Below are positions 3,187-64,000 of a stretch of 64,000 bases of DNA, piece after piece. Position 1 is the first letter of the stretch; every line of letters starts with the position of its first letter. The notes beneath the pieces are model-generated. The model saw only the letters and a list, made by a program, of their open reading frames with translations. It did not search any database and was not told the DNA's origin. This DNA comes from Sphaerolaimus hirsutus (taxonomy: Eukaryota; Nematoda; Chromadorea; Monhysterida; Sphaerolaimidae). The translations under genes were made by a program, and so were the position numbers. Where the stretch lies: the NCBI GenBank assembly GCA_964036195.1, contig OZ038460.1:18169504-18233503 (forward strand), read 5' to 3'.

Positions 3187-3236
3187 GTGAGTTTAAGCCT
3201 AAAGCTGTAAAGGGTTTTGTTATTTCTGTAGGTTTG

Positions 3237-6990: not shown

Positions 6991-8439
6991 CGTTTATAAT
7001 GCATCATTTAAACGGCCACGACAAAAATTTTTGGGCTTTTTTAAAATTTTGTCATGTAAATTGAAGATTTGTTGTGTCGGGGCCTTTGATCTCGATCACC
7101 TCTGTTGCCCAGGACAAGATTCGAGTTTTTTTTGTCGTTTGTCAATTTTTTGTTTCCGTTTTTTTTTTGCAGTTGAGCTCATAAGTAAAAATAGCATCAG
7201 ATTCATTGTAAACGTTGGAACTGTGACAAATTTTTCGCTAGATGCAGCCCCCAAGGCACCGCCAGCGATCCATGCATTTTTCGCTGCGAAAATTTCTCGA
7301 AAAAAAAAACATGCAAAAATCATCTTTTAAAAAATTCTTCCAAATTTGGGGGACTACCGGTGGCCTAAAGATGATCAAAGTTACAAAATTTGAAACAAAA
7401 AGACTCCTAGAAATACAATAAAATTCATGGAAAATACATACTCATCAGTCATATCATATGCACCAAATTTTGCGGACAAAAATCTTGCTACGGGTATGAA
7501 TCTTCGGGAAAATAATACATGAATTGGGAAAAACTAAATAATATTTAAACTATAAAATACGGTAATGGACAGTCAGTGTTATCAATGTGTGTAATAAGGA
7601 GCTTACACTGGGAAAAAATCACATCAGGGCTGAAATCCATTTGACCAGACATGTTTTTGTCGGGCAACCCGACTCATTGTATCAGAAATTATACTACCAT
7701 TTACACAAGTTTTGTCGGGCCTCCCGAAATAACGGGCAAATTGAATTTCGTCCCAGGCATCAGACATACTTATCAAGGGCTTCAAATCTGATGACATTAT
7801 TTTGTATTTGTATATTGGTTTATGTTTGATGCCTAAATCCAATTATGTTGAAAAAATCTTGTGCGCAGTGCAATAAAAACGCAATGGCAATGGAAGTATA
7901 TAAATATTTCGAACTAATATTATATGTAAAATTCACAAATGTGGACGCTATTATCACGAGTGCAACAAAACGAGAGAAAAAACTAATGAAAAAAACGGAA
8001 ATTCCTTTAAAGTGACGAGCATTTTTCACAATCCTGCAGCATAAAAAGTGGGAGGGCCACGGAATACCATCGTTTTTTTATACAAAATTGGGTTGGGTCA
8101 CTATTTTCTAATCAAAACTCAATCGAGTAAAGTTGAAAAAAGTAGATATTTCACGCGAAAAAATCTTTCAAAAATACAACACCAGTGTTGCAGGGCTTTT
8201 GGTGGGCGAGAACATTTACACACTGATCTTTTGGCGTTAAAAACATAGACAAAATCCATTAATGGCATCTGAGCAGAGATATAAATCAGGTACCAATTCT
8301 GCACCATGTCAAGTGTCAAATTAAGGACAACGATAAGTAAGTACCCTCAATTCCTTTGTTAAGTGACAAGCAAAGTTTCAAATATCATGCGAAAATCCTC
8401 TGGGAGCTTGAAAACTGACAGTCACTTAAAACCGCACAC

Positions 8440-8535
8440 GCACTAGTTTACGGCACCGAAACTTCGGGAACTGATAAATCAGTTTTTTACGCATTCGAGT
8501 TTACCGAAATGCCCGTCAACAGTAGTTGACGGAGA
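8440..8535. mobile_element. Family B fold-back element, half copy
   Basis: CACTAGTTTACGGCACCGAA, then CTGATAAATCAG, CGAGTTTACC and CCGTCAACAGTAGTTGACGG correspond to the left arm and centre of the better family B copies (24775, 60866). The right arm is missing. Confidence 0.55.
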
Positions 8536-8674
8536 ATGATAATTGTTTTTCTACACGTTTTCTGGTTTCGAAATATTCGCCACTTTATGGTGTGTGGCCA
8601 CAACGCATTTGAAACTTGACACTTTACACACCGCGAACTAAGTGGCACTTTTCACCGCGCAACTTTACATCACT

Positions 8675-8812
8675 TTATATCGCGCTGCCCTGGTGCTGCT
8701 CAATGTCCCTCTGCGCGCTGGACACTTTCGTCCGGTCTTTTGGCGCGTTTTCGCCCAACTGCGCGGCGAAAAGTCGCATCTTGTCTCTGAACGGCAAGTT
8801 GGCGCCGTCGAG
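8675..8812 (-). CDS. Afadin/canoe exon 18 (C-terminus and stop)
   Basis: After a 13-C tract and GCAG, the exon reads LDGANLPFRDKMRLFAAQLG, then ENAPKDRTKVSSAQRDIEQ and GSAI, with TAA at 8677-8675. This block is the conserved tail of canoe/afadin. From memory of the family, it is closer to the arthropod pattern (KMKMFA, followed by KISRAQRDID) than to the vertebrate one. Phase 0. I found no clear AATAAA within 600 bases downstream. Confidence 0.92.
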   Translation of the reverse strand, partial: LDGANLPFRDKMRLFAAQLGENAPKDRTKVSSAQRDIEQHQGSAI

Positions 8813-14800: not shown

Positions 14801-17800
14801 AGATGAGTTTTTTCGTATTTATGATCGGAGCCGCGGTGAATCGTAAAATTTTATAAGCGTTTTTTGGACAAACGAAAAACAACAACAACGCGCTGCCATA
14901 AAGAAGCTCGAGTGAATTAAATTTCGTCTCAGAAAGTCACATTCAACTTATCTCAAGTGAGTCAACTGGTGCCAGTCCTAGGCCCTGTAAAATGTCAAAT
15001 GTCATGCAAAGTGTCAAATGTCATGTGAAATGTCCTAGAAAATGTCAAACGTCCGTTTGCATGACATTTAACATTTCCCAGTGAATTTTACTTGACTTTA
15101 CAAACTTTGCATGATATTTGACATTTTACAGAGTCTCGGACTGCCCCCTGGTAGACACTTGAACCAACTGAATAAATCAACCCATCTTTCAAATCACACG
15201 CAACACGTAAAATATTTATGCACATGACAACAACAAGACAATTCCAAACACAATAGAATAGGAAACTTGACGTGAAAATGCAATGGAATTTGCGGAATGC
15301 ATTGTGAATGAATCATCTAATCGGCACTGACCGCAAATATTTATTATCATCATCACAAAAACGTGCCAAAACGCCAAGTTAAGTGTCGTCATTTATGTAT
15401 TCAAATGACCTAGAAAAACGACAAGAAATGGCGCCGTTTTTAGATCGGCGTCATTTCACACTGGCGTCAGGGATCTGATTCAATTCGAACAAAGGGCGGA
15501 CTTAAGGTGTCCGATCTTCAAATTGAATTTGGGACCAGGTGCAATGCACGAATTTCCTCTGATCACGCAAAATTATCGGTTAGCCAAAATCGCCGACGCC
15601 ATTTTTTTATCAGCGCCGTGATAGGCGCCATTCCATTGCTACACTAAGTTTATTTGCATTGTGACTTGGCCGCGCATATAAATTTTTTGACAATTCATGT
15701 AAACGCGTTGCGCACACCAGTACACCACCAAAATTTGGCAAACTCATAAATATGTTTTGAACGCATTTGAGTTTACCAGAAAAATGGCCTGTCAACTGCT
15801 GTTGACGGCAATCACAAATTATCCATTCTGGGAAACTCAAATCTGTTCGGAACCAATTTACGAGTTTCCCAAATTTCGACGGTTTACTGTTGCGCGCTGG
15901 CAAAAAAAACACACAAAGAGCCCCCCCCCCCCACCAAAATAAAAAAAATGTCCACACTCACCTGCGAGTGATAATGCGGCAACTGCTGCCCTTGGCTCGG
16001 TGCCAAGCCGGGGTTGTAATATTGAATTCTCTGTTGACTGTTGTAATTGGCGCCCCCTTGGGGAACTGCGCTGGTCGACGCGAATCTTTGGTGCGCTAGG
16101 CTACCTGAGATTTAAGATTAATTTTTTGAATTGGTAAATATCTACTTTTTAGTTGGGTAGGCTTTAAATGGGACGATGTTTTAAAGGATAGGGGTCTTAA
16201 ATAATTTTTTATTGAAGCCTATAACTGGGGCCAGTCCCACACCCTGTCAGTTGATGTACTTGTCAAAATAAATGTATTAAACTTACAAAATATGTCACCG
16301 ATTACAACTATACAATAACCACGAATATTACACAACCTTCTTACTTGAAAATCACCTATACAATGTCACAAACTGTAAAACGTCACATTGTGACATTTTA
16401 CAATGACGAATGACAAACTTTAAGACAATTTCACCAGACGTAAACATAAAACCTAAAACTCCACCCACCAGAATTTGTATACTGCTGTTGAACTGGCTGA
16501 ACGCCCGGCGGCTGGTCGTCCAAAATTCTCGCCAGCCCGTTATAAAAGGCGGATCTTTTAGCTACTTCAAACTGCACCGTGTCCCCAGATGACGCCATTA
16601 TTCTGGCCGCTCTGCGATGTGTGAAATTTAATTGAGCGAGATTTTTTACGGGTAGGTAAACTAGTTGACAGCCGAAATTTACAAGATCGGTTTCAATAGA
16701 TTTGAGTTTCCAAAATTGTGAATCTACACGCTAGTTTACGGTCGAAATTTTCAGAACTGATAAATCTGTGTTAAATATATAATGTTTACCATTATGAATC
16801 AGTTTTCATTCACGTCAGCAGCAGTTGACGGAGTCCTGATTCCGGTAAACTCAAATGTCTTCAAAACGGATTTAAAAGTTTCAGAAATTTCGGTTGTCAA
16901 TAGTGATGGAATGGCGCCATGGCGCTGGCGCCATTTGAGGGCGCCAAAGGGCGCCGCGCCATGGCGCCATTGGCGCTTGGCGCCCTTTTTCTGTGGCGCC
17001 CTTGGCGCCTGGCGCCCGCATTCTGAAAGGCGCCATGGCGCCCTTGGCGCTTGGCGCCCTTTTTCTGTGGCGCCCTTGGCGCCTGGCGCCCGCATTCTGA
17101 AAGGCGCCATGGCGCCCTTGGCGCTTGGCGCCCTTTTTCTGTGGCGCCCTTGGCGCCTGGCGCCCTGCTTTAGAAGGGCGCCAAAAAGGCGCCAGCAGGG
17201 TTTCACAGTGAGTGCTGTGTAAACGAAAAAAAATGAAAAAACGCATCCGTGGATGATCTAAATTCGCCAGAAAAATGGACGGAGTGGTGTGAGTGGGTGG
17301 AAATCTTTCGTCCAACGGTTCATCAGATCTGTCTGACGGATCAGAAGACAAGAATGATGGACTGTCTAACTTGCAAAATCATAAATAAACGGATTAAAAT
17401 CGTTGCAATTAGGAAACATTGTTCGGAACGGTCTATTTGTAATGAATGGATTGTTGTCAAATGACAATTTCCATTGCGTTTGAATTTGTCATGTGGATTT
17501 TTTTCAAATTTTTTTTATTGGTAGCCTTGTTTTTGTTGATTACATCCTGGAGAACGCCAATTAAGAAGTGAATGCGCGTGCAATGGTGCTGTAGAAACAT
17601 TTTTAGCACACGCATGGTGTTGTAGGCACTTTTTTATCCTGGCGCCCTTGGCGCCTGGCGCCCTATTTTCCGAATGGCGCCATTGGCGCTTGGCGCCCTC
17701 TTTCCGTGGCGCCCCTGGCGCCTGGCGCCCACTTTCTGAATGGCGCCATGGCGCCCTTGGCGCCTGGCGCCCTTTTTCTGTGGCGCCCTTGGCGCTTGGC

Positions 17801-20800
17801 GCCCACTTTCCGAATGGCGCCATGGCGCCCTTGGCGCCTGGCGCCATTTTTTTTGGCGCTTTTCCATCACTAGTTGTCAACGAGCCAAAAAGTATGTATT
17901 TTTTCATATTTTTAATGGGTATATTTTTTCATGAGAATGTAAAGTGGCCTGATTTAAATACCAGACATCGCATAATAAATGAATCAAAATAGGTAATCAA
18001 ATTACAATTGATAAAATAGGTACACGCAAATTAAAATGCGCATTTATTTTATGGAACAAAACCGGTTCCTGTACAATTTACAAATTTATTTACAAGTGCC
18101 ATCAGGGACCATTTCCGCTTGTTCCCTTTAAATTGTGAAGTAAAGTGTCAAATTTTATGCAAAAAGTCAGTTAAAATAAAAAATTTTAACAAAAGATTGT
18201 ATTACTGAAGTTTTGACATTTTGCATGACAATTGACAAATCTGAACGACATTTTACATGACATCTTACACTTTACACCATGTATCGCGAAAAAAACTTGT
18301 CGCGTTAATTAAATACATTTGATTGAAAAACTCACTGTTCCTGTGTAATATTGATCAAATTGTGTCCGTTAACTTTTAACAATTGATCGCCCGGTTCCAA
18401 TCTGCCGTCCTGCGAAAAAATATATAAAAAATGTAAAAACATATTCAAATGCTCACTTTATCATTTCCAGCAAACTTTTGCATAATCATTCGACTTTAAA
18501 ATCATAAATAATAAAAGACGCGGCGAAAATCTTCCATTCAAAGACGACGCGCGGTTTTTCAAAAGCGAACATACATAAATACATGAATAAAAATAAAAAT
18601 GGCCCATTGAGAAAATTGTGGGAAAATGGGATATCCAGCAAAGATATCATATGCGTCAGCAAAGATATCATAATCGCATGTCTATTATATCAGTCAAGGG
18701 AACGGGGTCAGTGTCAGTGCAATATTTTTATACCGGCCGCGGTTAGACATTCCAGTGTTCGAAAGTGAAATGTGAATTTTCGTAAAAAGACAAGTACAGC
18801 TGGCAATTGTGTAATTTGTCAAGTGACAAGTAATTATTGACACGGAATGGTCAAGCTTTGAGAAATATGACAACTATTTTGTGACTCGAAGCCATAGTCA
18901 GTCGATTACCATCATCAATAAAGATTTGTCACTGCAAACTTGTCACATTTCGTGTCAAATACAACATCAATTATCACTACTTATCTGATTATTCACAAGT
19001 AGTGATGGAATATTGTTAGCGCAATATCTTCATACTGGCCGCTCTTGGGCATTGGCTCTTAGTTTTCGAAAAAAGTGAATCTTGATAAAAAAGACAACTA
19101 CAGCTCAAGTGACAAGTGATTTTTGACACGGAATGATCAAGCTTTGATAATGTGGCAACTGCTTTGTGATTGGAAGAAATTGTCAGTGGACTGCCATCAT
19201 CAATAACAAAATTTCACTGCAACTTGTCACATTTTATATAAAATATTCATCAATTATCACCACTTATCTGATTACTTATATATAACTAGTGATGGAATGT
19301 CACTATTTGAGGGCGCCAGATGGAGAAGCGCCATGGCGCCAGGCACTTTTTGAAAATGGTGCCACGACGTCATTGTTTTTGGCGCTTTTCCATCATTATA
19401 CATAACTTGTTTTACTATCGAAGTGAAATGACAATTTAGTTGGCTGCCTGCCAAGCTACCAAAAATATGCGCAATTTTGTCCAACCGCCGCCAGAAATTG
19501 CCGCACAATGAACCAGAAAATGATCTCATCACTGAGGCAATCACCTCCAAAACTTCGATATCATTCGATCACAATAAACTCACAACAACGCATAAAAAAA
19601 CTGGAATTTCATTTCAGAAATTGAAACAAGACACTGTTACTTTCGGCAGAAATTACACTCGAGCGCGCGTACAATTTTACCGGAAAAAAAATCGCATAAA
19701 AACTGTCTCAAATTGGAACGCGGCACACGGGAAACGCGCAAAGAAAAAAGCGTGTAAAATAAAAACCTACCACAAAAACGTGGGGGGGTTGCAAAATTTC
19801 CACACAGGTAACAATAAATAAAGCCGGGTAGCATCATGGGAGCGATCGCATCAAGCATCGCGCGCGTTCACAGGCGCCCGAAAATTGCCCGGCGGCGGAA
19901 AAGTGTCGGGCAAAATTGGACAGGTGCCAAATTTTGCGGAAAATAAGCCTAGGAAAATAAGATTTTTGAAAGCCGTCAACAATAGTTGACAGGCTCTCAT
20001 TATGGTCAACTCAAACGTGTTCGAAACAAGATTAAGGCAATTTTCACAAATTTTGACGGTGTTCTACAATAGTGTGCAGCGCCATTATTTCGTGACATTT
20101 TCCGCCGCTGCAGCCAAGCCAAAGCGCAAACATTCGGCCCCTCGCGTGCATAATCACAGGCATTTCCAGTTAACGCAAAATGTAAGCTACATGGAGCTAA
20201 AGCCATCGAAATTCGTGCTTGTAGGGTTGGGAATAATATTTTTAATTTTTTTAAAGAATATTTTTGAATACTATTGAAGTGGTAATTATGTGGCATAGGG
20301 CACTTAAAAACGTGTATTTTTGTGAAATGACAACAACCAGAAATGTAGTGATATTTGCTCAAAAAGGGCAATTCTTATTTTGGGCAGCAGAATACAAAAT
20401 TTCAGCACTATTTACTGTAGCCCTAACATTTTAAAACTGTCGTTTTAAAAAATTATTTGAAAAACACAACGACCAACCCCAGCCTTGAAGCTAGTAAAAT
20501 CAAATCAGTGCGTAAATATTTGCTCATACATTATGAGCACCCGTCCCATGAGTACAGAAACATACACACCGTTTAAGTAGCTTAATAATACGGAAACGTG
20601 TGACTAGTATACATCAAATATGTAAATATACATATTGACCGAGAAAGCTTTACTATTGCCCCTGCTTGAATACTGTCGCCACATACTAAATATAGCGCCT
20701 GAGCACACTATTTAGTTGACAATCGTATTTTCCAAAATTTCCAACAGTTTTGAACACATTTGAGTTTACCAGAACGAGGACTCTGTCAACTACTGCTGAT

Positions 20801-29800: not shown

Positions 29801-32800
29801 CGCTGGAGTCCTTGGCGCTGGGGCCTGGCGCCGGCGCCAAGTCAGTTGGCGCCGCTCTGGCGCTGGGGACCGGTTTTAGAGCTGTTTGGTTCGCGGTGGC
29901 GCACAGCAACGGCGTGGGCACGCAGCCCATTTTAACCAATTTATCGCGCCGGCTCAACATGGGCGAGGCGCCAGACGCGTTTTCGCGATTTCGCTGTTCC
30001 AAGGCCGCGTCATAGTCGGCGCTGTTGTATTGCCGATGGCTGATCACGGATTTGGTGAGCATGTGATCACCCTCTTCACCGGCTTCACAGCCTTTGTGAA
30101 GGGTGGTGAGGCAGTGTGAAGCGGCCGGCGCCCAGGAATGTCGCAGTTGGGTGTTCCGCGCGGCCGCGCCGTTGTGTCTGGTTGCGGGGCACAAGTTCGT
30201 TCCTGCCGCCGCGACATTTTCAGCAAGAAGATCGCGATTCTGATCCTGGAGCGAAATTTAATTTGCCCGATACGTTTTTGTCGGGCGGCCCGGTAGATTG
30301 AGTCTATTTGAATTTGCACGCCGCGCCCGATTCCATCAAAAAGCAGGGTACAATTCCAAACAAAACTCAAATCGACCAAACCCGACCAAAAAAACAAAAA
30401 TCGGGCAAATTAAATCCCGTCCCTGGCCGCGATCCCCATCCATCGCCCTCGTATCCACCTCAGTATCCAAATCAGTTCCCTTCACCACCAACATTGGCTC
30501 TCCATTCTCGTGCCTCAGTACGGCCGGCCTAGATAGACTGCCGCGCGGCACGGCGTCGCTGCAGTCGGCCGCATTATCTGCCGCCGCGGCGGCGCTGCAC
30601 GAGCCGTTGGGTTGTTTGTGTGCCGCGGCTGCGGCTGCAGTTGCAGTCGGCGCGGCGCTGCCGTTGTTAGTTGGCTGCTGTTTCTTGCGATGGCCGAACA
30701 GCGACTTCATGTTGTCTGTGTTTGGGCGGCCGCGTGTGTCTGTGCTGGTGTGTTGGCTGGAAGGTATGCGTTGCACTGGGGGCTACCGTAATTTGATGAA
30801 TTGAGTCGCGTGATGAATACTCTGCCGAATTTTCCTGAGGTTACCGAATTACATGGGAGAATTCAAAGTGGTCTACACACAAGTTTTCGACCAAATATTT
30901 GAAAACCCGTAAATCAGCTTTGATTGGATTTGAGGATACCACAATGTGATGTTTGTCAACTACGGTTGTCAACTGAGATCCGTTCAAAGCTGATTTATAA
31001 GTTTTCAACAGTTCGCTTGAAAACTAGTGTCTGTATGTAGGCACATTATGCCTCAAAAAATCTCATCATTATAAAAAGTCTATCATTCAGGTGGGTTACG
31101 GTAGACCCCAATGTAAAGCATACTACCCTGCAGTCAGTCCAGTAGAAAATATGTAGCTAGCAGAGAAGCTTATTGCATGGAACCAGGGAAGCTCCGCGGC
31201 GCGTGTGATCAAATTATACGCCGCCGCGGCAAAATATTTATGATAAGAATGATAATAACGAATGAAAATGATAAGCCCTCAATATGTTTATAGGCTATAA
31301 TAGGGAATGGATAGATGGGTAGATAGTCCCTGCGGTAAAATGGATGTAGAATTGCATTTTTGGGGATTATTATCAAAGGTGCCTTGGGGAAAAACAGCTT
31401 ATCAACTAAGTGTACATGGAGATGTGGGGCAACAGCAGTATAAATTTAGAGCCATTGGAAAAGATACAGAAAGGAATGAAAAACATATTTGTGATGTACA
31501 CCTGGTTTGAAAAACAAAGCTTTCAAAAAGTGGGACGTTTTATAACTCAAAACCTATAAAAAAAACCCGCAATAACAATCAATTATACAGTAAACCTCGA
31601 AATACACCCAGGGGGTCAACTATTCACCAGCAAAATTCGCGGGGGGGGGGGCGGGAGGCTCAATTCAAGCATATACGGTAACTACCTAACACCATGACCC
31701 AATCAAAGAGCAGTGAAGCTTCCATAATACAAAGCAAGCTTATCAGTCACACAATGACACCTATACACGCTGGGGAGCATAAATGGGACTAATCCTAGTG
31801 TCACGCACACGTAGGGTTGGAAAAAAAACGTTTTTTTTTAACTCGATGTTTTTTTTTAAAAAAAAACGTTTTTTTTTAAAAAAAAACGTTTTTTTTTAAA
31901 AAAAAACGTTTTTTTTTAAAAGCTCCCAGATATGACCTAGTGTCAACATATATAGGTATATCAGACACTGGCAATACTCTGTGATGTTAAATATGACCAT
32001 ATAATGGCTGTGGAGCCATGGGATAGCATTATAAGTGGTGATTTGTGTCAAAAATATCCATTTTCGTCGACATATCGTTCGTATATCGCCTTATAGTCGA
32101 ATGTTCGTGACTTCAGGTAAAGTTTGGCACGGAATGGTGATCAAACAAGGTTATAAAAGGAGGTTGTTACTTTGGGAGTGAAGTTACACACTGTGGAGGT
32201 ACATGGAAGCACATTACCTCAATATTATATATTACAGCAACATATGTCGGCTTATTCACCCATGGTAGCACATAGAAATGGATGTTTTGATACTAAAAAT
32301 GCAACAAAACCAATGAAAACAACCACCAATGTCAATTTGTGTGTGAAATTGCGCGCTTGCGCGCAAAAATTTTGCAAAATACCTAGTGCTTAGTACTAAA
32401 AATTTCGGCCGATGTTTTTTTTTAAAAAAAAACATTTCGGACGTCATGTTTTTTTTTAAAAAAAAACGTTTTTTTTTAAAAAAAAACGTTTAAAAAAAAA
32501 CATCGGCCAACCCTACGCACACGTAAATATAAATATGCATATCTGTCTTGCGAATGGGGAAATATTGTCTTATCATGTGAAATGCAACAAGTGTCCTGAT
32601 GCCACGCTCAGACCCTGTAAAATGCCCTGTAAAATGTCAAATGTCATGCAAAGTGTCAAAAGTCATGGAAAATGTACCGGTAAAAAGGCAAACGAGGGAA
32701 ACCCATTATTTAACCACAGCGACTCGTAACCCATCGTCTCGTAAGCCAAAGTGCATCAAGATTTAACCCAAAGTACCTCGTCTCGTAAGCCGCAGCCAAT

Positions 32801-44800: not shown

Positions 44801-47800
44801 GATTTTAGGTCAATTTCGCAAATTGAAAAACTAGTTTCATTTCGGACGCTAGCAGACATAAATAAATAGCTTTACACGCAGAAAGCTCCATGATACTTGG
44901 GCGTAAGTTTCATTGCAATAAAATCTACGTTGTTGATAGATTGTCATTGACAGTTATAAATGAAAATAAAAGAATATGGGATATGGAATATTTGCATGTT
45001 ACCTAAATACCTTGATATTTTTACACACGGAATGTGGAAATCCATCAAAATATACTAAATACCTAAATAACTGCTTCGATTTTGACAACTACTTTTTTGT
45101 GAAATTGGTTATAATATTCAGGATTTCGTAAAGCACCCTAACTACGATTTATGACTGATAGGATTGAATTCAAGTTATATAACATACAAAAATTCTACAC
45201 TGTTTAGATGAATACAATCACAAATGTGTGACCAGTCGACTATGTATATGCAGTATTTGCTCGAATCATTCCCCTGGGGAATTATTTTTTCGTCAGACTT
45301 TCTTGAGGGGGTACTATTCAAGAGGGGGAATTATTCAAGGGGAGTAATTATTTCGTCATATTATTTTTAGCATGTTTCTATCAACTCATTTCATTAAATA
45401 TGCTTTATGAACAACATGAAATGTCATTTCTGTTCAAAATATACACAACTTATTTATCATATGCCTAGAGCTGGGAACTATTCGAGGGGTATTTTTTCCT
45501 CACTTGTCTGACAGGAAGGAATTATTCCAAGAGGAGGAATTATTCAAGGGGAGGAATTATTCAAGCAAATACGGTATATATGTATCTTGATAAGGCACCA
45601 TTTCATCAAGCAACCTACTACTTCCAGCATATTCACTCTACTCCTATCAAAAAGACATAAAAAATCTAATGAACTTTCTCTACCCAACACGGAATAAACA
45701 CATGCACAATCATTTGTATATTGTCATTGAAAATGTCAGCACATAAAATAAAATCCAAAATAGGTAACCTAGAAATAAATAATAAAACCTAGATAAAAAC
45801 CCGAGTCAAAAGCTAGAAATAACTAGAAGCCTTCAAGTTTCCATCAAGTTTAATGCCATAAAGTTGTATCATCCATGCAGCAATGTCACACGCACGCTGA
45901 AACTTGACTTGTCTTAATCCGAAGGTTTAAACTTTTACTATAACATATCAGAAGCTTATTATGTGGGGGGAGGTCCCCCCCCCCAAGAGTTAGTGATTTG
46001 AGGCGTCAGAGAATATTTTTGTGTATTTGAGTGACAATTGGATGACAATTTTAGCCAAAGGGTTGCATCGATATATCGTATCAAATATATAACATTTTTG
46101 ATATCGATGTCGAAAGTCGATATCGATTATTTATGAAAATATATTTATTATTTGAGTATCGATATCGAAAAAATTTAAAAAATATTTCATATTGAGTATC
46201 GATATCGAAGGTAGTATTTATCATTGCGTCGATAATATTGTACACGTATAACAATCAAATGGTAAAAATCCGATGGCGCCAGGGGCCAGATCCAATTAGA
46301 ACAGGGCGCCACGAAAACTCAATTTCAAATTGTAAAAACTTTGATAACCCCCCCCCCAAAAAAAAAGAAAGAAAAAACCGGCACCAATTCCGAGACCCGA
46401 TCCAGGAGAAACTATGCCAAATGGCGCCATAAATTACTTTTGCCAATCCATTCAATGGGAGGAAATAAACAGCCAGCCATACATACGGAATGAGCAAGGT
46501 AAATATAAGCTTACAGAGCTGTGAAATCGACTCGACTCGACTCGATATTAGCAAATACCCGGGTTCGAGTCCGGGTTACTTTAACCCGAATGTTGTTCAA
46601 TTGTCTTATCAATATTGACTCACATGAATTCAAACAGGATCTGGACTGAATTCAGGATCTTGGACAAGAAATGTTATTCCTGGTTATAAAAATGAATTTT
46701 CTTGCCCATATACTTTCAGAAAAAGTCTAGATTTGGTAGAAAACAGTAAGAAGTGTTTGACAAATTTCAGTCGTAAACTAGTGAGCGGGCCACGCAACAT
46801 TTGTGGATCCTACATAATTCGTATTTCGAAAAAAATTCAACAACAATATTTACTTTAACACGAGTCGGGTCGGGTCGAGTCGAGTCAAATTCCGAGTCTC
46901 AAACCAAACTAAAGCGCGCCAATGAATGAATGAGTGCATGCAGCTTCCTGCCATTAGCAATTTATCGCCATTGACATGACGAAACTGCACACTGAACGTG
47001 CCCACTGCGAAATTCACCTAAGCCACTTTCGTGGGATAAATTATGTTTGATATTCACCTACAAATTCGATCGGGAAAATTCGATGGTGGTGAAGAACACA
47101 GGGGGAAAAACGTGGAAAATGCAGTCCAGGAAAAGGGATAAAAAAGTTTTTAAACACCGGGTTTTTTTAAACAACGTTTTAACCGGGTATTTTTTTCAAA
47201 AGTTCATCAATATATCTAGATAAATATGAGTGAACAGGTATACCAGACTAGTGGCAGTACTTTTTTATATAAAAACGTTGGAAAAAAAACCCTGAACATC
47301 CCAACTCAGAAATAACAAAGCCCATTCAGACTTCCACATGGATTAAAAGTGAACACAAATCACATTATTTTGCACTTGATTACACTTCAATAAATTTAGC
47401 ACAATGGTGCAAATTCAGTAAATACTGAGGCATGATTCATCTTTTACACAAGGCATACAAATATTTTAATGCAATTGTAAGGCTGTTCGTAAAGTACTGG
47501 GACACCACATTTTCTGGGGACCAAACTAAAATAGAGATATGGAAAATATGTTTTGAATAATGGTTTAAAAAATGTTTTTGCTGCTTTAAAACAGCATTTC
47601 AGTCTTTTTCTTGTCTATAAGTGCTGTGCACTCTGGTTGACAGCTGAAATTTCCAAATCTGATAAATCAGCTTTGAACACACTTGAGTTTACCAGAATGG
47701 AGAGTACATCACTGTTAATGAGGATAAGATGATAATTTTTGAATATGTGAGCAAATTTTTTGCTATTTTGATGTGATGGTCAATTGAATAATGCATCTTG

Positions 47801-50800
47801 TAAGCATTTGGCACTATCTCAGCAAAGAACTCAGTCAAATGGTAGAAATTACACAATTTTTGAAGGCTGAAAATTCAGCAAATAAAGCCACGTAGAGTGC
47901 AACCTCAGAAAATATATGGAACAGACCAAAATATATATATATCTAAAACAAGTGCCTCACTATGATAAGCAAACACAGAAATCGAGAACCACCATTCAAT
48001 TTCAGCTAATTCAACTGCAAATTCAATTTAAATTTTAAACTGGAAAAGCCACAGTACATTCACACAGTAATATAAATATGACAGGTCATGCTTTCAGATG
48101 CCAAACACAGATAAACTATATAATGCTGAAATGGCGGAATGTGAAATGGCACATACCTAAAAATGGAAAATATATAGATTGAAGGAGTGGCTAGAAATAT
48201 TTATTTGTTATTTTTAGATGGAAAAAATAAATGATTTTCGGTAACGGCTGACTTATTGCGATAACACCGTGAAACTTTTTTCCAACATTAATGTTCAAAA
48301 ATTTTGACAACGCTTTTCAATTTTTGTTTTGTAAAAAGCAAAAAAAATGTTTTCAAACGATTCAAAAGGACTTGGTTATCCGGGGCCAAAGCAGATCCCT
48401 ATCAAGCCACAATTTTCAGAAAAAAATTCAAACGCAGTGACAATGACAAATAAATCTTCGAATAGGGTACAGTTAACTTTCAACTTGAAATGTCAACTGC
48501 TATAACTCTTTTTAACAAAATAACAGACCTATCTGCAAACAAAGTATGCATAAAACTCTTCTTCAAGTGTCACTTAATGTCATTCAAAAAGGAATAACAA
48601 AGTGAAAATAACGGGGAAAATTGTCGAGATGTCTCTCGAAAACGTTGCATCAAACGTTGCACTTGAACAAAATTGAGTAAACATAAGTATCCTCTCTTTG
48701 ATAAATATAATACGTAAATATTTCACAAAGTATGAAAATGAACGCATTTGCATTCAGATGCATTTATACTTCACAAAATACTTCATAAAAACGAACTAAA
48801 ATGATGCACTTTTACATTTCAATGTGACTCCTAATTCGCATTATGATCTGAAAATGTCCCATGGGGCGAGTTATGAAATTCTAGATGAAAAAAACCTGCC
48901 GCTTTATAGGATTTTCGACATGAAAGGCATGGAATTCGATTCGGAACGACAAAATTGAATTGGGCGGGTCAGTTGAGTTGAAGGAAATTCGGGCATTTAC
49001 ATATTTACATCGACCAAAAAAGCTTGAGCATGTTGCCCGAAATCTTAGAATTCCGTTAATTTTCCTTTTTTTGAAAAAACTTCCACGAAATTTTAAACCC
49101 ATACGATCATTCACAAAACAAAGCAAAAAAACGACAAAATTCAAAAATTCAAATTTCTCCATCAAACGCCAATTTTACGCGGCGAAAACCGCAAATTTCG
49201 CGCGCGCGAGTTTAACGGCAAAAGTAAAAGATGTCCCATGGAAATAGAAAATCTCATGCAAAGTCAATAGAAAATGTGAAAATGGCTTAAGGTCGCCGAC
49301 CCCGGCACTGTTATTTATTATTCAGCGTAAAATTGACAAAAACGTCGGAAAATGTTCGTCTATGAACTTTGAGGATGATCTACCGTATTTTTCATGATAG
49401 AACGGCACATCTAAAATTAAATAATGAATTAAAAGGCACTAGTTTAAAAATGAAAAGGTTTTTTAATTTAAAGGATCCCGATTCCGATAAAATTTTGGTA
49501 TTTTTCAATCACGATCGCGACAAATCAAAATGCCCGTAGGAAAGTCCCCTTCTACGTTTACGTTTTACGTAAAAATGTCAATACGTGAAGAAACTTAGGC
49601 TGGAATCGTGCCAAACTGCTAAAAAAATGCCAAAAAAGTTGAGCACGGAACATTTCGAAGAAAACTCTAAATGACGTCTTTTAGAGAAATGGTAAAAATG
49701 CAGCAGCGCCATTCTATAAGAAGAAATATGGTAGCCAAACAAATTTTCCGTTTTTTAAAACCTATCTATGTGATCAGGAGAAATTAAGAATATTTTAATT
49801 TATGATAGAGAAAAATTAAAGTGAAAGGTAAAAAACGAGTAAAATTTTCAGAGCAATTAGGTATTTTTTATGGATTTATAGATTTTTTATGGATCTAAAT
49901 AAAAAGAAAGAATAGGCACTGCGCACACCAGTGCACCATCGAAATTTAAGAAACTTATGTATCTGTTTTGAACATATATATTTGAGTTTGCCATAATGAT
50001 AACGATGGCGATCAAAAACTATTCATTCTGGTAAACTCAAGTGTGTTCAAAACATATTTATGACAGTGGTATTCTAAATTTTGACCCCCGGGGGGGGGGT
50101 TGCATAGATAGTTGAAAAAAGCTTTTTACAGGGTCTGGGAGTGGCCCCAGAGTTTCCAAAATTTCGACGGTCTACTAGTATGCGTGACCAAATGGGCCCA
50201 TACACACTGGATGTCAACTGAATTCGTGTCAACTAAATGTCAACTGAATTTAAGTGATACTGTGATTTCAACTTATCTATCTGATAGAGCATAGTTAATT
50301 TTACACCATGACACTTCATTTTCATTGTTCCTGTTAAGTGTGATGCTTTTTACAAACTTCTTGTTTTATTCAATTGACACTGAGTTGACGCGAATTTGCG
50401 ATGTCAACTAGTGTGTGGGCCCATTAAAACGCAATGACACCAGAAAACCTAAAAGAATCATCCACGGACAATTACGAGAAATTTCCAAAACTATACAACG
50501 CGAAATTTGCTCAAATTTGACTGACGCGAGTGTAGTTTCTTCAATTTTACCAAAAATTAAAGTGACGCATGGAAAAGTGATTTTTGGCGGTTTGACCTAG
50601 TTTCGAATAGATTTACGATACGTGGAAACAAGACAAAGTTTCAATAATAAATAGGATAGGTATGTAAATATTAGAAATGTAATGTTAGTAAAATTTTAAT
50701 GTGAGAAGGTTAATGTTAATAAAGTATGTTTTTATTTTGTATCCATTCATAAAATCAGTGACCAAAAATTGAACGGCGCTATCAGAAACTACATCACAAT

Positions 50801-53800
50801 GCGCGCGACACACTTCCAATACCAGTCAACGTGGTAAGTAGGGTTCAAACGATATATCGTATCGAATATCGAATATCGGATATCGACCATTTTTTAATAT
50901 CGAATATCGAATATCGATATCGAAAATTTTGAAAAAATATCGAATATCGAATACCGATATCGAAAATTTTGAAAAAATATCGAATATCGACCATTTTTTC
51001 GATATATCGAACCTGTATTGTGTCCCCAAATTTACTTTTCATTTTGAGATGTTTATGGTTGATCTGATGTGCTTATAGTATTGTATTTGATGAGTAAAAG
51101 TACAGTATTGATAATGTCATTGTTGTTGGAGTGCTAAATTTGAAGCCAGAAAACGCTGATATACGTTTGTTGCAACATGCCCTTAAGCAATTAGGTTAGG
51201 ATGAACTGTAATATCTACCAATTCTTTTTTGTCTGATACACTTTGATTCATCATGTTTTTCTTCTATTGTCTACCATTGAGTGATGTAAAGCTTGTTAAA
51301 ATCACTTGCACCATTCAAATTTCAGTAAAGAGATGATTAAACATGTGTGCAACCACATGAAAATACAATATGCCACTTGACCTTTCAGACTATACCAAAA
51401 GCAAGTTGCGATATCGAATATCGAAATATCGAATATCGACCATTTTTCAATATCGAATATCGATATCGAGGTTCCATATCGTATCGATATCGAATATCGA
51501 GTTTCAGAAAAAAAATATCAAATATCGAATATCGATATCGAAAATTTTGAAAAAATATCGAATATCGAATATCGATATCGAAAATTCATATCGTTTGAAC
51601 CCTAGTGGTAAGTGACAAGTAAAGTTATAAGTGGTAAGTCAAACGACAAGTAAACTTCAATTCACTTGACAAGTATTTTCAGTAACAAATGGACCCATCT
51701 CTTCATGTCTACTTACCGCTTACAACGTTTCGCATCATTTATCCACCAACAGAATAAACCCCTACCCAAATCCTCAAATACCCAAATACTCAACCCAAAT
51801 ACTCAAGTACCCAAATACTCAAATACCCCAACACCCAAATACCCAAATACTCAAAAATCCCAAATACCTTATCCGCAGGCGGCCCTTGGCGCTGTTCCAA
51901 AGTAATAGCTTGAGCACTGTCGAAGTGCACCGTCCAAGTACCAGAAGCGCTCGGCTGAACTATAACTCGGCATAGACCTGCGATTTGGGTGGATTTGGAT
52001 TAAATTTGCATTTTTTTGTCTATTTGAGAGTTTAGAAGGGAGGATAAAAAGTTGGGCGGGAAATAGTGTTTGCCGATTTTGAGTGGACATGGCTAGTGAA
52101 GTGTTGGGGGGGGGGGGGGGGGGTAAACGAGGGGGGTCTAGAAAGGGGTCGGGGCGGCGTTCAAACGTGAACTCGATCCGAAGGAGTAAAAACAGATGAA
52201 AATATTAAATAATGTTTAATAATTACAGATTTGAAAAAATTGGCAAAAAATTCACTTTGATACATAAAATTGGGGGGGGGGGGATCTCTCAAAACTAGCT
52301 CCACATGTAAATATAAATTGGGCCTTTTATAATCGGAATGGAGCTGAACCCATTCGGGACTAGGGTTGGAAAAAAACGTTTTTTTAACTCGATGTTTTTT
52401 TATTAAAAAAACGTGGGTTTTTTTAAAAGCTCCCAGATATGACCTTGTGTCAACATATATAGGTATTTAAGACAGTGGCAATACTCTGTGATGTTATATA
52501 TGACCATAGGTTATACAAGGAGTTTGTTACTTTGGGAGTGAAGTTACACACTGTGGAGGTACATGGAAGCACATTACCTCAATATTATATACTACACCGA
52601 CATATGACGGCTTATTAACCCATGGTAGCATATATAAATGGATGTTTTGATACTAAAACTGCCACAAAACCAATGAAAACAACCACAAATCTCAATTTGT
52701 GTGTGAAATTGCGCGCATGCGCGCAAAAATTTTGCAAAATACCTAGTGCTTAGTACTAAAAATTTCAGCCAATGTTTTTTTAATCAAAAAACGTTGTTTT
52801 TAAAAAAAACATCGGCCAACCCTATTCGAGACCCCAAAGTTCAATTTAGAAATATCTACATCCTTTTTGGCGCTACTTTGCTGTGGCGCCATTGATGCTT
52901 GGCGCTAAATATTCAAAAAACACCATGGCGCTTTTGGCCCTTGGCGCCAAAGTCTTGGCGTTTTTCACAGCACTATACAAAACCGGTGAAAAGAATGTGT
53001 TCGCTTAAATCTGATTTGAATGTAAGCGGCGCAATACTTATTTAGGCGGGGGCTAAAAATTGTATCATTGGATACTAAAAGTAAATTTCTTATGGAAATT
53101 GGGTAACATCCGCTTTGCAGCTACTTTTATGGCTTTTTATCATTTAAAGGCATCAAAAAGGGTGGATTTTCAACCAAAATGTAAAAGTTCTGTGTAAAAG
53201 GTTTCTCGAAATAAATAACTACAAAACCAGGGGAAAAAATATATTTACTAAGCTTTATTCCCGTTATTCCGTGGCAAAACTTTACAATCCAGTGCATATA
53301 AATAGAAAATCCGATCTTAAAAAAAGGGCACTTGAATATCGCGCGGGAATATTCCCATAAAAACGCACTTTATGTAAACACTTTTCAAAAGCGAATATCA
53401 CAAAAGAGAAGAAAAAAGATGCCACCATACATAGACACGCGACGAATAAAAGTGGACCAGGTGCCGATCCCAGACCCTGTAAAAAGCCCTGAAAAATGTC
53501 AAATGTCATGCAAATCATGGAAAATGCCCTGCAAAATAGCAACCGAGTTGCTATTGTCCAGGGCATTTTCTTTGACTTTTGACACTTTGCATGACATTTT
53601 ACATTTTACAGGGTCTGGGATTGGCACCAGGCACTCTTTGCATTTGTGCCACCGCAATAACTATAGCCGTTCTAGTTATCTTGAACCCACAGCAGTGGAA
53701 ACGTGACCCGAAAAGAAACCCGTTTTTGACCCGAAATTTCGGGTTTCCCGAGTCGGAATTGAATAAACATTTAAGTCAGTTTGGAAATGTAAGACGAATG

Positions 53801-56800
53801 TAAGAATCAGCTCTATTCACTAAAATCTGAGTCTAAATGAATGTCCTAATTCTGAAAAAAATCAAAAAGGTTGAAAATGGGTTCTTAGATCGCCACATTT
53901 CAAATAAATGTTCAAAATAAATTGAGCCGCTGGATAAGATTGGGAATGGAAAATTCCGATTTCAATAAGTGAAAAGTGATATCACCGACAAGTAAACTTA
54001 CAACTGACAAGTATTTATTCCCAAATTCACTTGTCACTTACACTTTTCTAGTCACTTGCACAAATGAAGCATTGGCACCAGAACCCGATTTTTGCAAACC
54101 CGATTCAAAATCCGGGTCGGGTTTCCATCCCTACCAAATTGTTACACTTCCCTTTGACATTGAGCGACCAAAAATCCGAACCACAAAAATTCCCACGGGA
54201 ATAATCGCGTTCCAGTGTCACAGACCAAAAAAAATTGGGCCAATCTTATGTTTTCTGCGCGCATGATTTCTTGATATATTTTCGCGAGGTCATGGGTCAA
54301 ATGGAATGTAAATGAAAGTGGGCCATGGAAATAGGCTTAGAGTAGACTCCATGAGTAATTCGATTTGCATGTGCAAAATTCATATAAAATGTGGTTGAAC
54401 CACTTGGAGGACTTTTCTGGGGGCAGTCCCAGACCGTGTAAAATGCCCTGTAAAATGTCAAATTGTTATGCAAAGTGTCAAAAGTCATGGAAAATTCCCT
54501 GGAAAATGGCAGACGTGCGCTTGCCAATTACAGAATATTTTGCATGACTTTTGACACTTTGCATGACAGTTCAATTTTACAGGGCACTATAAGAGTTTTC
54601 ACACTTTCACTTGCACAAAGATAGATGCGAAAAATAGATGCGAAAGTCTTGATTTTTATCCACTGAATATGACTAATGAATGTGCAGGTGACCCTTTCAT
54701 TTGGATCAACTCTGGCGCCAAGTTGACTGAAAATCTTACGAAAAAGTAATCCTAATCTTTGCAATCAGGTCACAAAATCACAAATTACCCCGTTAAAAGA
54801 TTACCAACATCAAAAGGGAGTTCAAGACAACGCAACAATACAAAACAATACATCCACAATCGTGTTTAAACATGATATTTAGGCACGCCGAAAGTCATGT
54901 AAAATAACATACAACTATAAAATCACCCCCACAAATAATAATAGGACACTTGACAAAGTGTGCTGCGATGCACATTGCAGTACATGGGGTTTTATCGTTC
55001 CCTCTCCATGTAGAGGTATGGTATAGTGTCACACATGAGAGTTGTCGGTTTGAGGTTTGTCACTTTGTTTTAAAAAAACAAAGTTCAGATAGAATTTAAA
55101 AGTCTGTTTAGTTTGACTGTTTATCAGTTGTCAGGTATCAGAAATATCAAAATGTAATTGGTAAGCACATTAAAAAAAAAGTTGCACTGCAGGGATCGGA
55201 GGGATCGGTTGAAGGGATCGGTAATTTTAACCTGAAAGGTAGATAATAGATGCGAGAGATAGAGCCAGCCATGTGAAAAGTGACACCCAAATTAACTAGA
55301 AAATTTCATATATTTTATCCATGATGTTTGCACTTAGGGGTGTAAAAAGACAGGATCAAAGTAAAAGTGACCAATTTTCAGCCCAAATTCACAGTTGTTG
55401 AATTCAAATGGACTATGTTGAATGAATGAATAACCCTGACTGATTTTTTCCATTGTTGATCATGTTGAGAATAGGGTTCAAACGGGACCAGTTTTTCGGA
55501 CCGGGACCGGGACCAGAAATTTTCTAATGTCGGGACCGGGACCGGGACCGGGACTGGGAGGTCGGACCGGGACTGGCTTTTTTCAATTGTCAGGACCGGG
55601 ACCGGGACCGGGACTGGGATTTGCCGAACCAGGTACCGGCACCGCGGTATTGTTTGAACCTTATTGGTATGTAATATCCAGCCAATGTTGTTCCACACAC
55701 CTCCACTGTGTGAAGGACCACTCTCAATGTATTAGCCTTTTCTTATAACATTGTTCAAGCAGTATTCCATTGCCATCTTCACTTGAAGTTGTGAATATAT
55801 GATGAAACGCAATGTACGCAGGATTTTTTTGGGAGGGAGGGGGCGGCGCCAGTTGTAGGTGCCAACACCATGCCAGTATTGGCGCTGGCGTTGGCGCCAA
55901 CGTCTACAATATAGGTATCTTTATATACCTATATTTCGTACTAGAATCATGTTGGGGACCTTTCTAACGCTGTCACATTATGGAAAATACATAGTAATCA
56001 TTGGCTGGGTATTTGCGCGCTCGCGCGCAAAAAAATTTAGATGTTCCTACAAAATCGCTTTAGAAAAGTGCCATTTCTGGCAAATTTTCTTGATAAATAC
56101 GTTTTTTTCCATCCCTTGTCGGGACCGATATAAAATTCCGGGACCGGGACTGGGTGGTCGGGACCGGGACCGGGACTGGCTTTTTTAAATTGTCGGGACC
56201 GGGACCGGGACTGGGACTGGGGTGTCGGGACCGGGACCGGGACCGCCCCAGTCCCGACTTTTTGCCGAACCATGTACCGGGACCGCGGTCCCGTTTGAAC
56301 CCTAGTTGAGAACACAATAAAGTGACAAGTGCTCATTAGATAACCTAAGTGAAGTGACAAAAATTCAACCCAGCCACCCACCAGCCGACAACCTTCAAGA
56401 ATGGCACTATAAACACATGCACACAAACTGCTCAAATCAAATTGAACCAGTGGGGACACTTCATGAGTGCACCGCGCGCATCAAAGGAATAGCACTGAAT
56501 AAAATTGGAGCAAGTGAACACAACGATCCACTTTGTGCTATGCCATGGCTCAAGGGACCCAATTTTAGAGAGTCTGCTTTAATTTTACTTTTACGATTTC
56601 ATTATAATCACTGTTTTTGAACTAAGATTTAGAAAAAAGCCTATTATTTTAGGTGGGTTCGAGTTTGATTAAGTTGTCGCTTTAAAAAACCTGCTGAAAT
56701 AAAATTCAATTCCAATGATCCAGGGCTAAAATAACCTCACTGCAACAACAATAACATCAAGAAGGCTTTTTCACGGGAATAAGACTGAGCGCACCGCAGC

Positions 56801-59800
56801 GCATGTCACCAGCATGTGGTCTAAATTAGGGAATGAAATTATGGCGCTGGCGCCATTTAAAAATGGCGCGGCGCCATTTTATATTGGACACAAGTTACTA
56901 ACAAAATAAGGTTGGAATATTTCTGACTATCGAGCATTCTCAATATTGAGGGTAGGGCTATAAAATAAATATCATCCCCTTTTGAAACAACCACGAAATA
57001 ATTAATTTTCAATGGCGTCAAAAATGAGAGGATCTTTTCAATGTGCAAAAAAATTCTTTGTTGGGTTTTTTTGGCACCATGGTTACAGGTGAATACAATA
57101 AGTGATAAGAAAAGTGATTCATCAGGTGTTCATCAGGTTGCAACTGAGCAGTTAATGATATGCCAAGAAAACTTGTTAAAAAGTGGCAGCTAGCAGAATT
57201 GGAATCAGGTGTAACTCACAGACCCTGTAAAATGTCAAATATTCAGTAAAAAAATTAATTGTCATTTTTAGGGCTTTTTACATGACTTTTGACACTTTGC
57301 ATGACATTTGAGATTTTACAGCGTCTGGAAGTGACCCCAGACCATCACAGCGCCATTTCTCCCTGGCACATTGCCAACGCTAACTCACTTCTCATGTAAA
57401 GTGCCTTAGAGCAGATGACCGGTGCTACATACAGACCGAGTAGCAGACACAATAAAAAGTGTAGTCAACAAGTGCACATGCAACAAGCGTTGACAGCACT
57501 TGACAGATTGCACATGGAAACTTGCAACTTTTTCCTGGCACAAACATTTCAGCGCGAAGTTGAAAAGTGACAGTTGGAAAGTGTGCAGGAGGATAATTAA
57601 AGTGGCGAGGCTAATTAAAAACAAAGCGTTCTAGAAAAACTATAAAAAAGAAAAATCACAGGAAAAAAACAGGCTTTTGCACAAGTACTTTTGCAAAGTA
57701 GCTTTTGCACTTTTGCACAAAACTCTAAATTCTCAATTGAATCAAGAAAAAAGTGCCCGCCCGAACACAATGCGCAATCTACAGTCGCATCAAAGCCGTT
57801 CGAAAAGTGCGCGCAAATGAACTTCCGTTGTGTTCAAATATTGAAGTACGTAAATACACGTAATTCGAACGGGACAGGGATTTTATTCACCCGGTGGAAA
57901 ATCTAGTACTCCATAATTTAGTACCCCACTGAAATTTGGCAACTCATAATCTTGTTTTGAACACATTTGAGTTCACCAGAATGAGGAGTCCGTCAACTAA
58001 TATTCACTTGGATCAAAAACAACCATTGTGGTCAACTCGCATGGGTTCAAAACATATAAAATACTGAGTTTCCCAAATTTCGGGCTAAAAACCTGTCGGG
58101 TTAATCAAAATCCTCCCCAGTGGAGCGACAAAAATGCCGCTACAGCATTTCCCCGCCGCGCGAAAATCGAATTTGGAATCATACTTCAGAATCTCAGAAC
58201 AATCTTGGCAAGTGTCCAAAATTCGGAGATGGGAGATTTTCAGTCGGGATAAGGCAAATTATCGAAGAATAAAACGACGCTACCAAACATCGATTTTCCA
58301 TTTCATTGGGCATTCGCGCGCGGGTCAAGACCTAATTACGATACCAAAATACAGGTAAAGATGGTAAAAGTGACCCATGCACGAGCGCAGAATTGTTTAC
58401 CGGTGGGGTGTCACTTAATTAGAAATGAATGTGCCTAAAGGCACTAGTTTTGGGGGAGGCCAGGCCACTTTACATCCTGGAAAATTTACATTCTTCCACA
58501 AAGCGACAGTTTACATACTATGGTACATTATGTACGAAATTGTGTTGTCTGTTGTGTGTACTTAAAGATTATCATTTCGATTTCAATTCATTTCGCACTT
58601 GTCACACAAATAAAATTCGGGTGCATGCCAATACCCATGCTGATTTTGTGGAGTCATGTAATTTTCATAAATTTTTCACATCTGTTGCATGACCCTTGAA
58701 TGTAAAGTGTGCGAAAAGCACGGGATGATACATTTTTTACATGATGTTAACAGATGCAGTACTGTGGAATGTAAAGTGTCCAAATACAGAGAATGTGAAC
58801 TGTCTAGGATGTGAAGTGACGCTAGCTCGTTTTGGGGTGGGAAGAGGCATGTCAGTTTTCTACTTATACTCGGCGGACAGCACACTAGTCTGAAAACCTA
58901 CCATAATTTAATGAATAAAATCTTGTGATAAATTTCGTAATTAATTATTCCATAGTAAAAACGAAATATTATGATGAAAAAACTGTATAATTTTTGGTTC
59001 ATTATTCAGATGGGTTACGGTAGGTTTTCATACTAAGTGTGCTGTCCATCGCGTATACTTTCATCGAAAATCAGATGTACATAAACTCCAAATGAGTGGC
59101 ATCACACCCCCGCTAAATTCTATCTTTGTCCAAAAATATTTTGTAAAAAACTTTACATATTCAGCGTTTTTTAATTCCACTGTAACTTAGAAAACTCATA
59201 CCTAAATCGACTTTGGATGCACTTAAAAATAAATGAGAATTGATAAATATTGGAATTTTAAGTTTTGTGTGAAATGACAGCGAATTATGTATTTTACACC
59301 AAAAAAAACTTAAGCAAGGCAAAAATCAAAATCAGTGTGATTTTCCTAGGGACTTTGCAATGTTTATATTCACCATAAAAAGTCTGATATCCGATTTCAG
59401 TGCGATATTGTTTTTATCTTTCAAACTTATCAATGTCGGCATTGTAAAAAACGCTTGAAACTTGATACTCAAAAAAATAAATCGCCAAGACAAAATTCAA
59501 TATCACTCTAAAAATAGTCTTTTTTCAGCCAAATATCGCATATAATCGCTGTGACAATTCTGGCGCCAATCATAAATGAGAAAACACGATACAAATCAAC
59601 ACGCTGTAGCTTCTTAGTTCTTATCTGCGCACGCAAAAGTCTTATTTTGTGTATAATAATGTGGACAGATTAATGTATAGTCTGCAAACTTTACAGTGAA
59701 ATCTACCATATTCCGTCGGAATAGTGAACCAAAAATTAGCTCTATATATATATTTTTTTCACCGTGACACATTGCTTGCAATATTGGATAATTTTGTATC

Positions 59801-63914: not shown

Positions 63915-64000
63915 TCCCCTGCCCGCAAGGGCGTACGCAGGGGGGGGGGCGGGGGGGGCGGCCGCCCCCCCCCCCCCCGTTCGCCGGGCCAGACATAAAA
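63915..64000. mobile_element. Possible start of a CGTACGCAGG-type hAT element at the window edge
   Basis: AGGGCGTACGCAGG followed by G runs and then C runs resembles the left end of 60118-60574 (CAGGGACGTATCCAGG plus G runs). The right end lies outside the window. Confidence 0.35.

What the first reader, a model, noticed from the sequence alone, without database searches (positions are those of the whole stretch)
50839..56304. Two hAT elements share a terminal repeat but carry different subterminal arrays
Elements 50839-51604 and 55472-56304 both begin TAGGGTTCAAACG and end CGTTTGAACCCTA, and each has a perfect 8-bp target duplication (GTGGTAAG, GTTGAGAA). One has arms of pure ATATCG words, the other of GGGACC words. 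In both, the left array closes with a decayed copy of the terminus. hAT transposases are known to bind short subterminal repeats, so these look like binding-site arrays that were homogenised independently, perhaps tracking different transposases.
Basis: partly seen in the sequence, partly recalled or inferred. Interest (0 to 1): 0.8.

Follow-up and report, generated by a model that had tools for sequence, protein, structure and literature searches.

The report
Jumping genes with swapped end-tag arrays
Several small jumping-DNA elements in one stretch of an unidentified genome share nearly the same tips but carry completely different short repeated words next to them, most likely docking sites for the enzymes that move them, so the docking code may change faster than the tips.

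Summary
E1 (50839-51604) and E2 (55472-56304) look like intact hAT-type insertions with perfect 8-bp target duplications, inverted repeats of 17 and 18 bp, and different word arrays (ATATCG; GGGACC). The 'decayed terminus' closing the left array is real in E2 and unsupported in E1. The arrays are words punctuated by A/T spacers, not pure repeats.

The picture is wider than reported. The window holds five TAGGGTT elements with 8-bp duplications (chance mean 0.4). Three (E5a, E5b, E6) form one family with a third array, A9CGT9. E2's middle is partly homologous to theirs (score 109 against a shuffle maximum of 34), so related elements carry different arrays. A fourth array, GGCGCC, sits on a TAGTGATGG element, E3. 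In E1, E2 and E3 the two arms are direct, not inverted, copies.

Best reading: non-autonomous hAT elements whose subterminal transposase-binding arrays turned over while the tips were kept. Each part has precedent (Ac/Ds, Hermes, diverse hAT binding motifs). No transposase or genome could be examined, so 'different transposases' is untested. New variant of a known kind.

The parts
50831..50838 (.). E1 left target-site duplication GTGGTAAG
50839..51604 (.). E1, 766-bp hAT-type element, 17-bp perfect terminal inverted repeat TAGGGTTCAAACGATAT
50852..51012 (+). E1 left ATATCG-word array with A/T-rich spacers, 40-bp block period
51409..51591 (+). E1 right ATATCG-word array, a direct (not inverted) copy of the left arm
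   Evidence: direct 167, inverted 49, shuffle maximum 29
51605..51612 (.). E1 right target-site duplication GTGGTAAG
55464..55471 (.). E2 left target-site duplication GTTGAGAA
55472..56304 (.). E2, 833-bp hAT-type element, 18-bp perfect terminal inverted repeat TAGGGTTCAAACGGGACC
55485..55619 (+). E2 left GGGACC-word array
55620..55663 (+). Decayed internal copy of E2's right terminus, 86% identical to 56261-56304, same orientation; makes 55472-55663 a two-ended mini-element
55668..55824 (-). E2 core segment 1, homologous to the E5/E6 core (opposite orientation relative to E5b/E6)
   Evidence: score 109 vs shuffle maximum 34 for E5b; 68 vs 40 for E6
55940..56112 (+). E2 core segment 2 with the GCGCGC motif, homologous to the E5/E6 core in the same orientation as E5b/E6
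   Evidence: 63 vs shuffle maximum 36 for E6; 49 vs 42 for E5b
56116..56304 (+). E2 right GGGACC-word array and right terminus, direct copy of the left arm
   Evidence: direct 128, inverted 20, shuffle maximum 25
56305..56312 (.). E2 right target-site duplication GTTGAGAA
28217..28922 (-). E5a, related 706-bp element, tip TAGGGTTGG, A9CGT9 arrays at both ends, duplication TAAGTGTG
31812..32515 (+). E5b, related 704-bp element, inverted relative to E5a, duplication CGCACACG
52361..52824 (+). E6, shorter member of the E5 family, duplication TTCGGGAC/TTCGAGAC (7 of 8)
16901..17872 (.). E3, 972-bp hAT-type element, tip TAGTGATGGAA, GGCGCC-word arrays in direct arms, duplication GTTGTCAA
19287..19398 (.). 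112-bp single-array element of the E3 family, duplication TATATAAC/TACATAAC (7 of 8)
46056..46240 (+). Old decayed relative of E1 with ATATCG words; no right end or duplication recognised

Best explanation
E1, E2, E5a, E5b and E6 are non-autonomous hAT-type elements moved in trans by hAT transposase made elsewhere in the genome. Shown: conserved tips (TAGGGTT), 8-bp duplications, word arrays beside both tips, three unlike words on TAGGGTT tips, and partly homologous middles in E2 and E5/E6. Inferred: the words are subterminal binding sites for the transposase's BED/Hermes-type DNA-binding region, many weak sites per end raising local enzyme concentration, while the tip is what is cut. Inferred: arrays turn over by block duplication and conversion within an element, so a new word can replace the old one at both ends while tip and core persist. 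The direct orientation of words in both arms gives the element two unlike ends, as Hermes needs; in E2, part of it may also reflect a composite origin, because the left arm carries its own right terminus.
For: Five TAGGGTT...AACCCTA elements with 8-bp duplications (4 exact, 1 with one mismatch) against a control mean of 0.4, maximum 2. Word counts far above shuffles. ATATCG clusters 3 of 3 and GGGACC clusters 2 of 3 in these elements or an old relative. Same unit in E5a and E5b at both ends, no gap columns in the 197 array positions counted against 2 in the core. E2 core homologous to E5/E6 core. Direct arms in the 3 of 3 elements tested: E1 167/49, E2 128/20, E3 292/46 direct/inverted. Literature: Ac transposase binds subterminal AAACGG hexamers (PMC3260210, passages); Hermes BED domain binds short subterminal repeats, symmetrised LE/LE ends are inactive, and repeats STR2-7 are antisense on the left end and STR1-5 sense on the right (PMC10368747, passages and section 8); hAT-type DNA-binding regions prefer CGG, GCGC or AT-rich motifs, and for the four hAT-encoded proteins with motifs these match subterminal regions of their elements (PMC8097297, parts 1-2 of 3).
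Against: No transposase was found: no Pfam family in the six frames of 48001-58000 or in single strands of 1-9999, 7001-16999 and 27001-36999, and none above its cut-off in ten ORFs (one sub-threshold DUF3597 match). The rest of the window was not scanned, and frames read through stops may hide weak matches. The duplication motif nTnnnnAn (recalled as typical of part of the hAT superfamily) is met by 4 of 7 duplications tested (the 112-bp E3 relative was not among them). Only the E5/E6 family has more than one intact copy here. Most lax GGCGC clusters have no clear tip. Similarity of A/T spacers among E1, E2 and E3 is not established as homology. In Hermes the right-end repeats did not contact BED domains, and mutating inner left-end sites left about 70% activity (PMC10368747). 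Some Ds1 elements move without the hexamers, and tested Ds-like elements did not move despite having them (PMC3260210).
Confidence: 0.6

Rival explanations
1. The arrays are ordinary simple repeats that grew by slippage beside the tips and have no role in transposition.
For: Short repeated words and block duplications are what slippage and unequal exchange produce. GGCGC clusters also occur without a clear tip. Some Ds1 elements move without subterminal hexamers.
Against: ATATCG clusters lie only in E1 or its old relative, and 2 of 3 GGGACC clusters in E2. Both arms of each element carry the same word. The unit is constant across E5a and E5b with no gaps in the 197 array positions counted, although they are made of long A and T runs, which should slip easily.
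Confidence: 0.22
2. E1 and E2 are macrotransposon-like composites: two copies of a small two-ended unit in the same orientation, moved together by their outer ends, which is why the arms are direct repeats.
For: Arms are direct in E1, E2 and E3. E2's left arm contains its own right terminus. A 112-bp single-array unit of the E3 family exists. Ac macrotransposons are described in maize (PMC9910405, passages).
Against: No left terminus is found at the start of the right arm in E1, E2 or E3, and no right terminus closes E1's left arm. E3's left-arm match (2.7% of stretches) used a variant end chosen after the fact; the E3 end itself gave 88%. The sequence after E2's inner terminus is homologous to the E5/E6 core, so it is family sequence rather than random host DNA.
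Confidence: 0.3
3. E1 and E2 are unrelated elements that share a 13-bp tip because one transposase, or convergence, fixes it; the arrays reflect separate origins, not turnover in one lineage.
For: E1 and E2 share nothing clear between the arms: middle alignment scores 21 and 20, and E1's middle matches E5b and E6 no better than shuffles.
Against: It does not explain E2 and E5/E6, which share a tip head and core segments but not the array.
Confidence: 0.35

Closest known systems
Maize Ac/Ds family (hAT), especially Ds1 and Ds-like elements
   Same: 8-bp duplications, short shared tips, subterminal hexamers (AAACGG) bound by the transposase, non-autonomous members that share little but the tip (PMC3260210, abstract and passages).
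   Different: The tip is not Ac's 11-bp repeat (recalled); AAACGG occurs 0 times in E1 and 2 times in E2. Arrays here are of several unlike words, in direct arms.
Hermes (hAT) subterminal repeats
   Same: Many short sites beside both tips; end asymmetry. Read from the tips inward, Hermes STR2-7 are antisense at the left and STR1-5 sense at the right, which I infer means one strand overall, as for nearly all words in E2 (PMC10368747, passages and section 8).
   Different: Hermes sites are AAG(T/C), dispersed rather than arrayed.
CGGBP-type / hAT-19 DNA-binding proteins
   Same: Related hAT DNA-binding regions have CGG, GCGC or AT-rich preferences that match subterminal regions of their elements (PMC8097297, parts 1-2 of 3); the words here (GGGACC array with CCGGG, GGCGCC, ATATCG) fall near those classes by eye.
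   Different: That work measured proteins; no protein is known here, and motifs were not compared by computation.
CMITEs of Acropora corals
   Same: Small elements of one genome whose tips and internal parts evolve at different rates; tandem arrays of MITEs (PMC2872659, abstract and sections 9 part 1, 13 and 17).
   Different: piggyBac type, TTAA duplication; there the internal part is conserved and the tips vary.

Membership tests
hAT superfamily | 8-bp target-site duplication | tested here: met
   E1, E2, E3, E5a, E5b exact; E6 7 of 8
hAT superfamily | Short terminal inverted repeat beginning T/C-A-G-N-G type (recalled) | tested here: met
   TAGGGTT in five elements, TAGTGATGG in E3
hAT superfamily | Duplication motif nTnnnnAn (recalled) | tested here: inconclusive
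   4 of 7 duplications tested; window frequency 0.099
hAT superfamily | hAT transposase (BED, RNase H-like, hATC) in an autonomous relative | not testable with these tools
   No whole genome held; nothing above cut-off in the window parts scanned
Non-autonomous hAT / MITE | Short, non-coding, several copies per genome | tested here: inconclusive
   E5 family has three copies in the window; E1 and E2 have one intact copy each plus fragments
Ac/Ds family | 11-bp Ac/Ds terminal repeat (sequence recalled) and at least three AAACGG in subterminal regions | tested here: not met
   Tip TAGGGTTCAAACG; AAACGG count 0 (E1), 2 (E2)
Ac-type macrotransposon | Two complete elements whose outer ends move together | tested here: inconclusive
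   Inner right terminus found in E2; inner left terminus not found in E1, E2 or E3

The most novel reading that the evidence does not exclude
The subterminal array is a swappable address code: within one hAT lineage the cut tips and core persist while the whole set of binding words at both ends is rewritten (between A9CGT9 and GGGACC, direction unknown), in step with a changing transposase DNA-binding domain, so coexisting families escape each other's transposase and their own parasites. A CG step inside every array may be the constant heart of the code.
Probability: 0.2. Interest if true: 0.75.

Novelty: new variant of a known kind. Interest (0 to 1): 0.46.

Why it matters
How coexisting families of DNA transposons avoid moving each other is, as far as I know, little explored. 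A genome in which closely similar tips carry three kinds of subterminal word (and a fourth sits on another tip), two of them beside homologous core segments, lets one ask directly whether the array or the tip sets specificity, and how both ends of an element change their sites together. It would also give a natural series for testing how hAT DNA-binding regions gain new preferences.

Tried and rejected
Related sequence elsewhere: exact end or core patterns gave 0 matches in viral contigs and in genome contigs; E1 gave none in phage records. These collections are prokaryotic or viral, so absence says little. Rfam (gathering) and ARAGORN (bacterial code) found nothing; the host remains unidentified.

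Literature: a search for tip and array strings found no paper with the E1/E2 tip or arrays; 7 papers held only the short TAGTGATGGAA string and none is about transposons by title. 'hat superfamily' with TAGGGTT gave 0, and a six-term search on homogenisation gave 0. In the listings (some capped: 12 of 33, 12 of 78, 15 of 22) I saw no title or abstract start reporting the same arrangement. That is absence from this open-access library and these listings only.

Rejected or left open: that E1's left array closes with a terminus. That E1 and E2 arrays descend from one array with shared spacers: E1 to E2 was beaten by 2 of 300 shuffles and 1 of 300 genomic sets, E2 to E1 by 1 and 17; E1 to E3 and E3 to E1 by none; but comparisons from the old copy at 46056 were near chance, and reverse-complement scores were similar or higher in several comparisons, so it stays open. 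That 28342-32390 is one 4-kb element: it is two separate 0.7-kb insertions, each with its own duplication. That CG is enriched in every array: it is not beyond base composition in E2 and E3.

A first comparison of E3 blocks was out of phase and was replaced.
Full report
Observation. E1 (50839-51604, 766 bp) and E2 (55472-56304, 833 bp) have perfect inverted tips of 17 and 18 bp sharing TAGGGTTCAAACG, and perfect 8-bp duplications. A scan of the whole window for such pairs recovered both, with 2 rows in all from 20 block-shuffled windows. Words are dense in both arms of each and nearly absent from the middles (0 in E1, 1 in E2), but they are short runs of words separated by A/T-rich spacers, with a block period of 40 bp in E1 and repeats of about 60 bp in E2.

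Arm orientation. The two arms of each element are direct copies: direct/inverted alignment scores are 167/49 in E1, 128/20 in E2 and 292/46 in E3, with shuffle maxima of 29, 25 and 34. In E2 the tip with its first GGGACC is inverted, and the right arm holds 2 opposite-strand words, one of them in the tip, against 14 on the + strand. This can be read as polarity, since Hermes needs unlike ends and symmetrised left ends are inactive (PMC10368747, passages), or as history, two copies of one unit side by side.

Internal terminus. E2's left arm ends in a copy of its own right terminus: 44 bp, 86% identical, same orientation; 0.17% of 11,630 stretches score as well for the 13-bp tip. The 8 bp after it (TTGGTATG) do not match E2's duplication, so the outer element moved as a whole (inference). 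In E1 the same claim fails (42% of stretches); in E3 the E3 end gives 88% and a variant end picked afterwards 2.7%. No inner left terminus is found at the start of any of the three right arms (42%, 99.8% and 69%). A composite origin is therefore partly supported for E2 only.

More elements. Pairing TAGGGTT and AACCCTA (at most 1 mismatch each) with 8-bp duplications (at most 1 mismatch) gave five elements, control mean 0.4 and maximum 2: E1, E2, E5a (28217-28922), E5b (31812-32515) and E6 (52361-52824). E5a, E5b and E6 are one family with A9CGT9 arrays; in E5a and E5b AACGTT cores are 20 bp apart over three successive units at one end and two at the other, while E6 keeps one core at each end. 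E3 (16901-17872) has another tip, TAGTGATGGAA, and GGCGCC arrays; a 112-bp single-array relative sits at 19287-19398. In that scan, which used a lax tip, 7 rows passed at 1 mismatch or fewer (E1, E2, E3, E5a, E5b, E6 and the relative) against a control mean of 0.86; the 3 further rows at 2 mismatches are fewer than chance gives.

Shared core, different array. E2's middle has two segments homologous to the E5/E6 core. Segment 1 scores 109 against E5b (shuffle maximum 34) and 68 against E6 (40), in reverse orientation; segment 2 scores 63 against E6 (36) and 49 against E5b (42), in forward orientation. So one half has been inverted in one lineage (inference). This is the best evidence that array and core have separate histories. 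E1's and E3's middles show no such match.

Turnover of arrays. E5a and E5b differ at 8 of the 197 array positions counted; by reading the alignment, 5 of these are only two kinds of change, each present in the left and in the right array, as conversion between arms would give. There are no gap columns in those positions (core: 2). E3's two full left-arm 74-bp blocks are 98.6% identical; left-right pairs are 90.5-91.9% and the two right blocks 90.5%. In E1 the left block at 50896 is as like its right-arm counterpart (97.5%) as its left neighbour (97.5%); other pairs are 85-95%, one block being truncated. The number of cases is small.

CG. ATATCG, GGCGCC and A9CGT9 contain CG, and GGGACC makes one where words join (CCGG). 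Arms of E1, E2 and E3 have 8.8-10.6 CpG per 100 bp against 3.7 in the window, but observed/expected is about 1 in E2 and E3 and high only in the A/T-rich arms of E1, E5 and E6, so a special role for CG is a guess.

Comparison. Ac/Ds gives the precedent for shared tips, subterminal hexamers and unlike interiors; 486 of 903 maize elements with Ac tips share little else with Ac, and none of the Ds-like elements tested responded to Ac (PMC3260210, abstract). CGG, GCGC and AT-rich preferences measured for hAT-type binding proteins, with matches in subterminal regions of the elements (PMC8097297), fit by eye the three hexamer classes here.

Limits. One 64-kb window of an unidentified host; no genome, no transposase. 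Pfam scans covered all six frames only for 48001-58000 and one strand for three other stretches, plus ten ORFs.

Noticed in passing
28217-28922 and 31812-32515: Two 0.7-kb copies of one element, 95.8% identical, lie in opposite orientation about 2.9 kb apart with different duplications, flanking a stretch with long open frames (29436-30782, minus strand) that matched no Pfam family above its cut-off.
   Followed up: partly
60118-60574: E4, an element with tip CAGGGACGTATCCAGG, duplication GAAACGTG, long G and C runs beside the tips and GGCGCC-like words inside; a similar end lies at the window edge (63926-64000).
   Followed up: partly
28363-28383, 32349-32369, 52707-52733, 56013-56033, 60422-60448: A GCGCGC-N-GCGCGC palindromic motif beside a run of A recurs inside elements of different tip families (E5, E6, E2, E4).
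   Followed up: no
1315-1362 and 61240-61259 (minus strand): Lone decayed ends like E2's: TGGGGTTCAAACGGTACC and TAGGGTTTAAACGGGGTCCC; no partner end was recognised.
   Followed up: partly
2939-63595, many places: Short repeats of about 17-19 bp such as TTTCCATGACATTTGACAC and relatives recur across the window.
   Followed up: no
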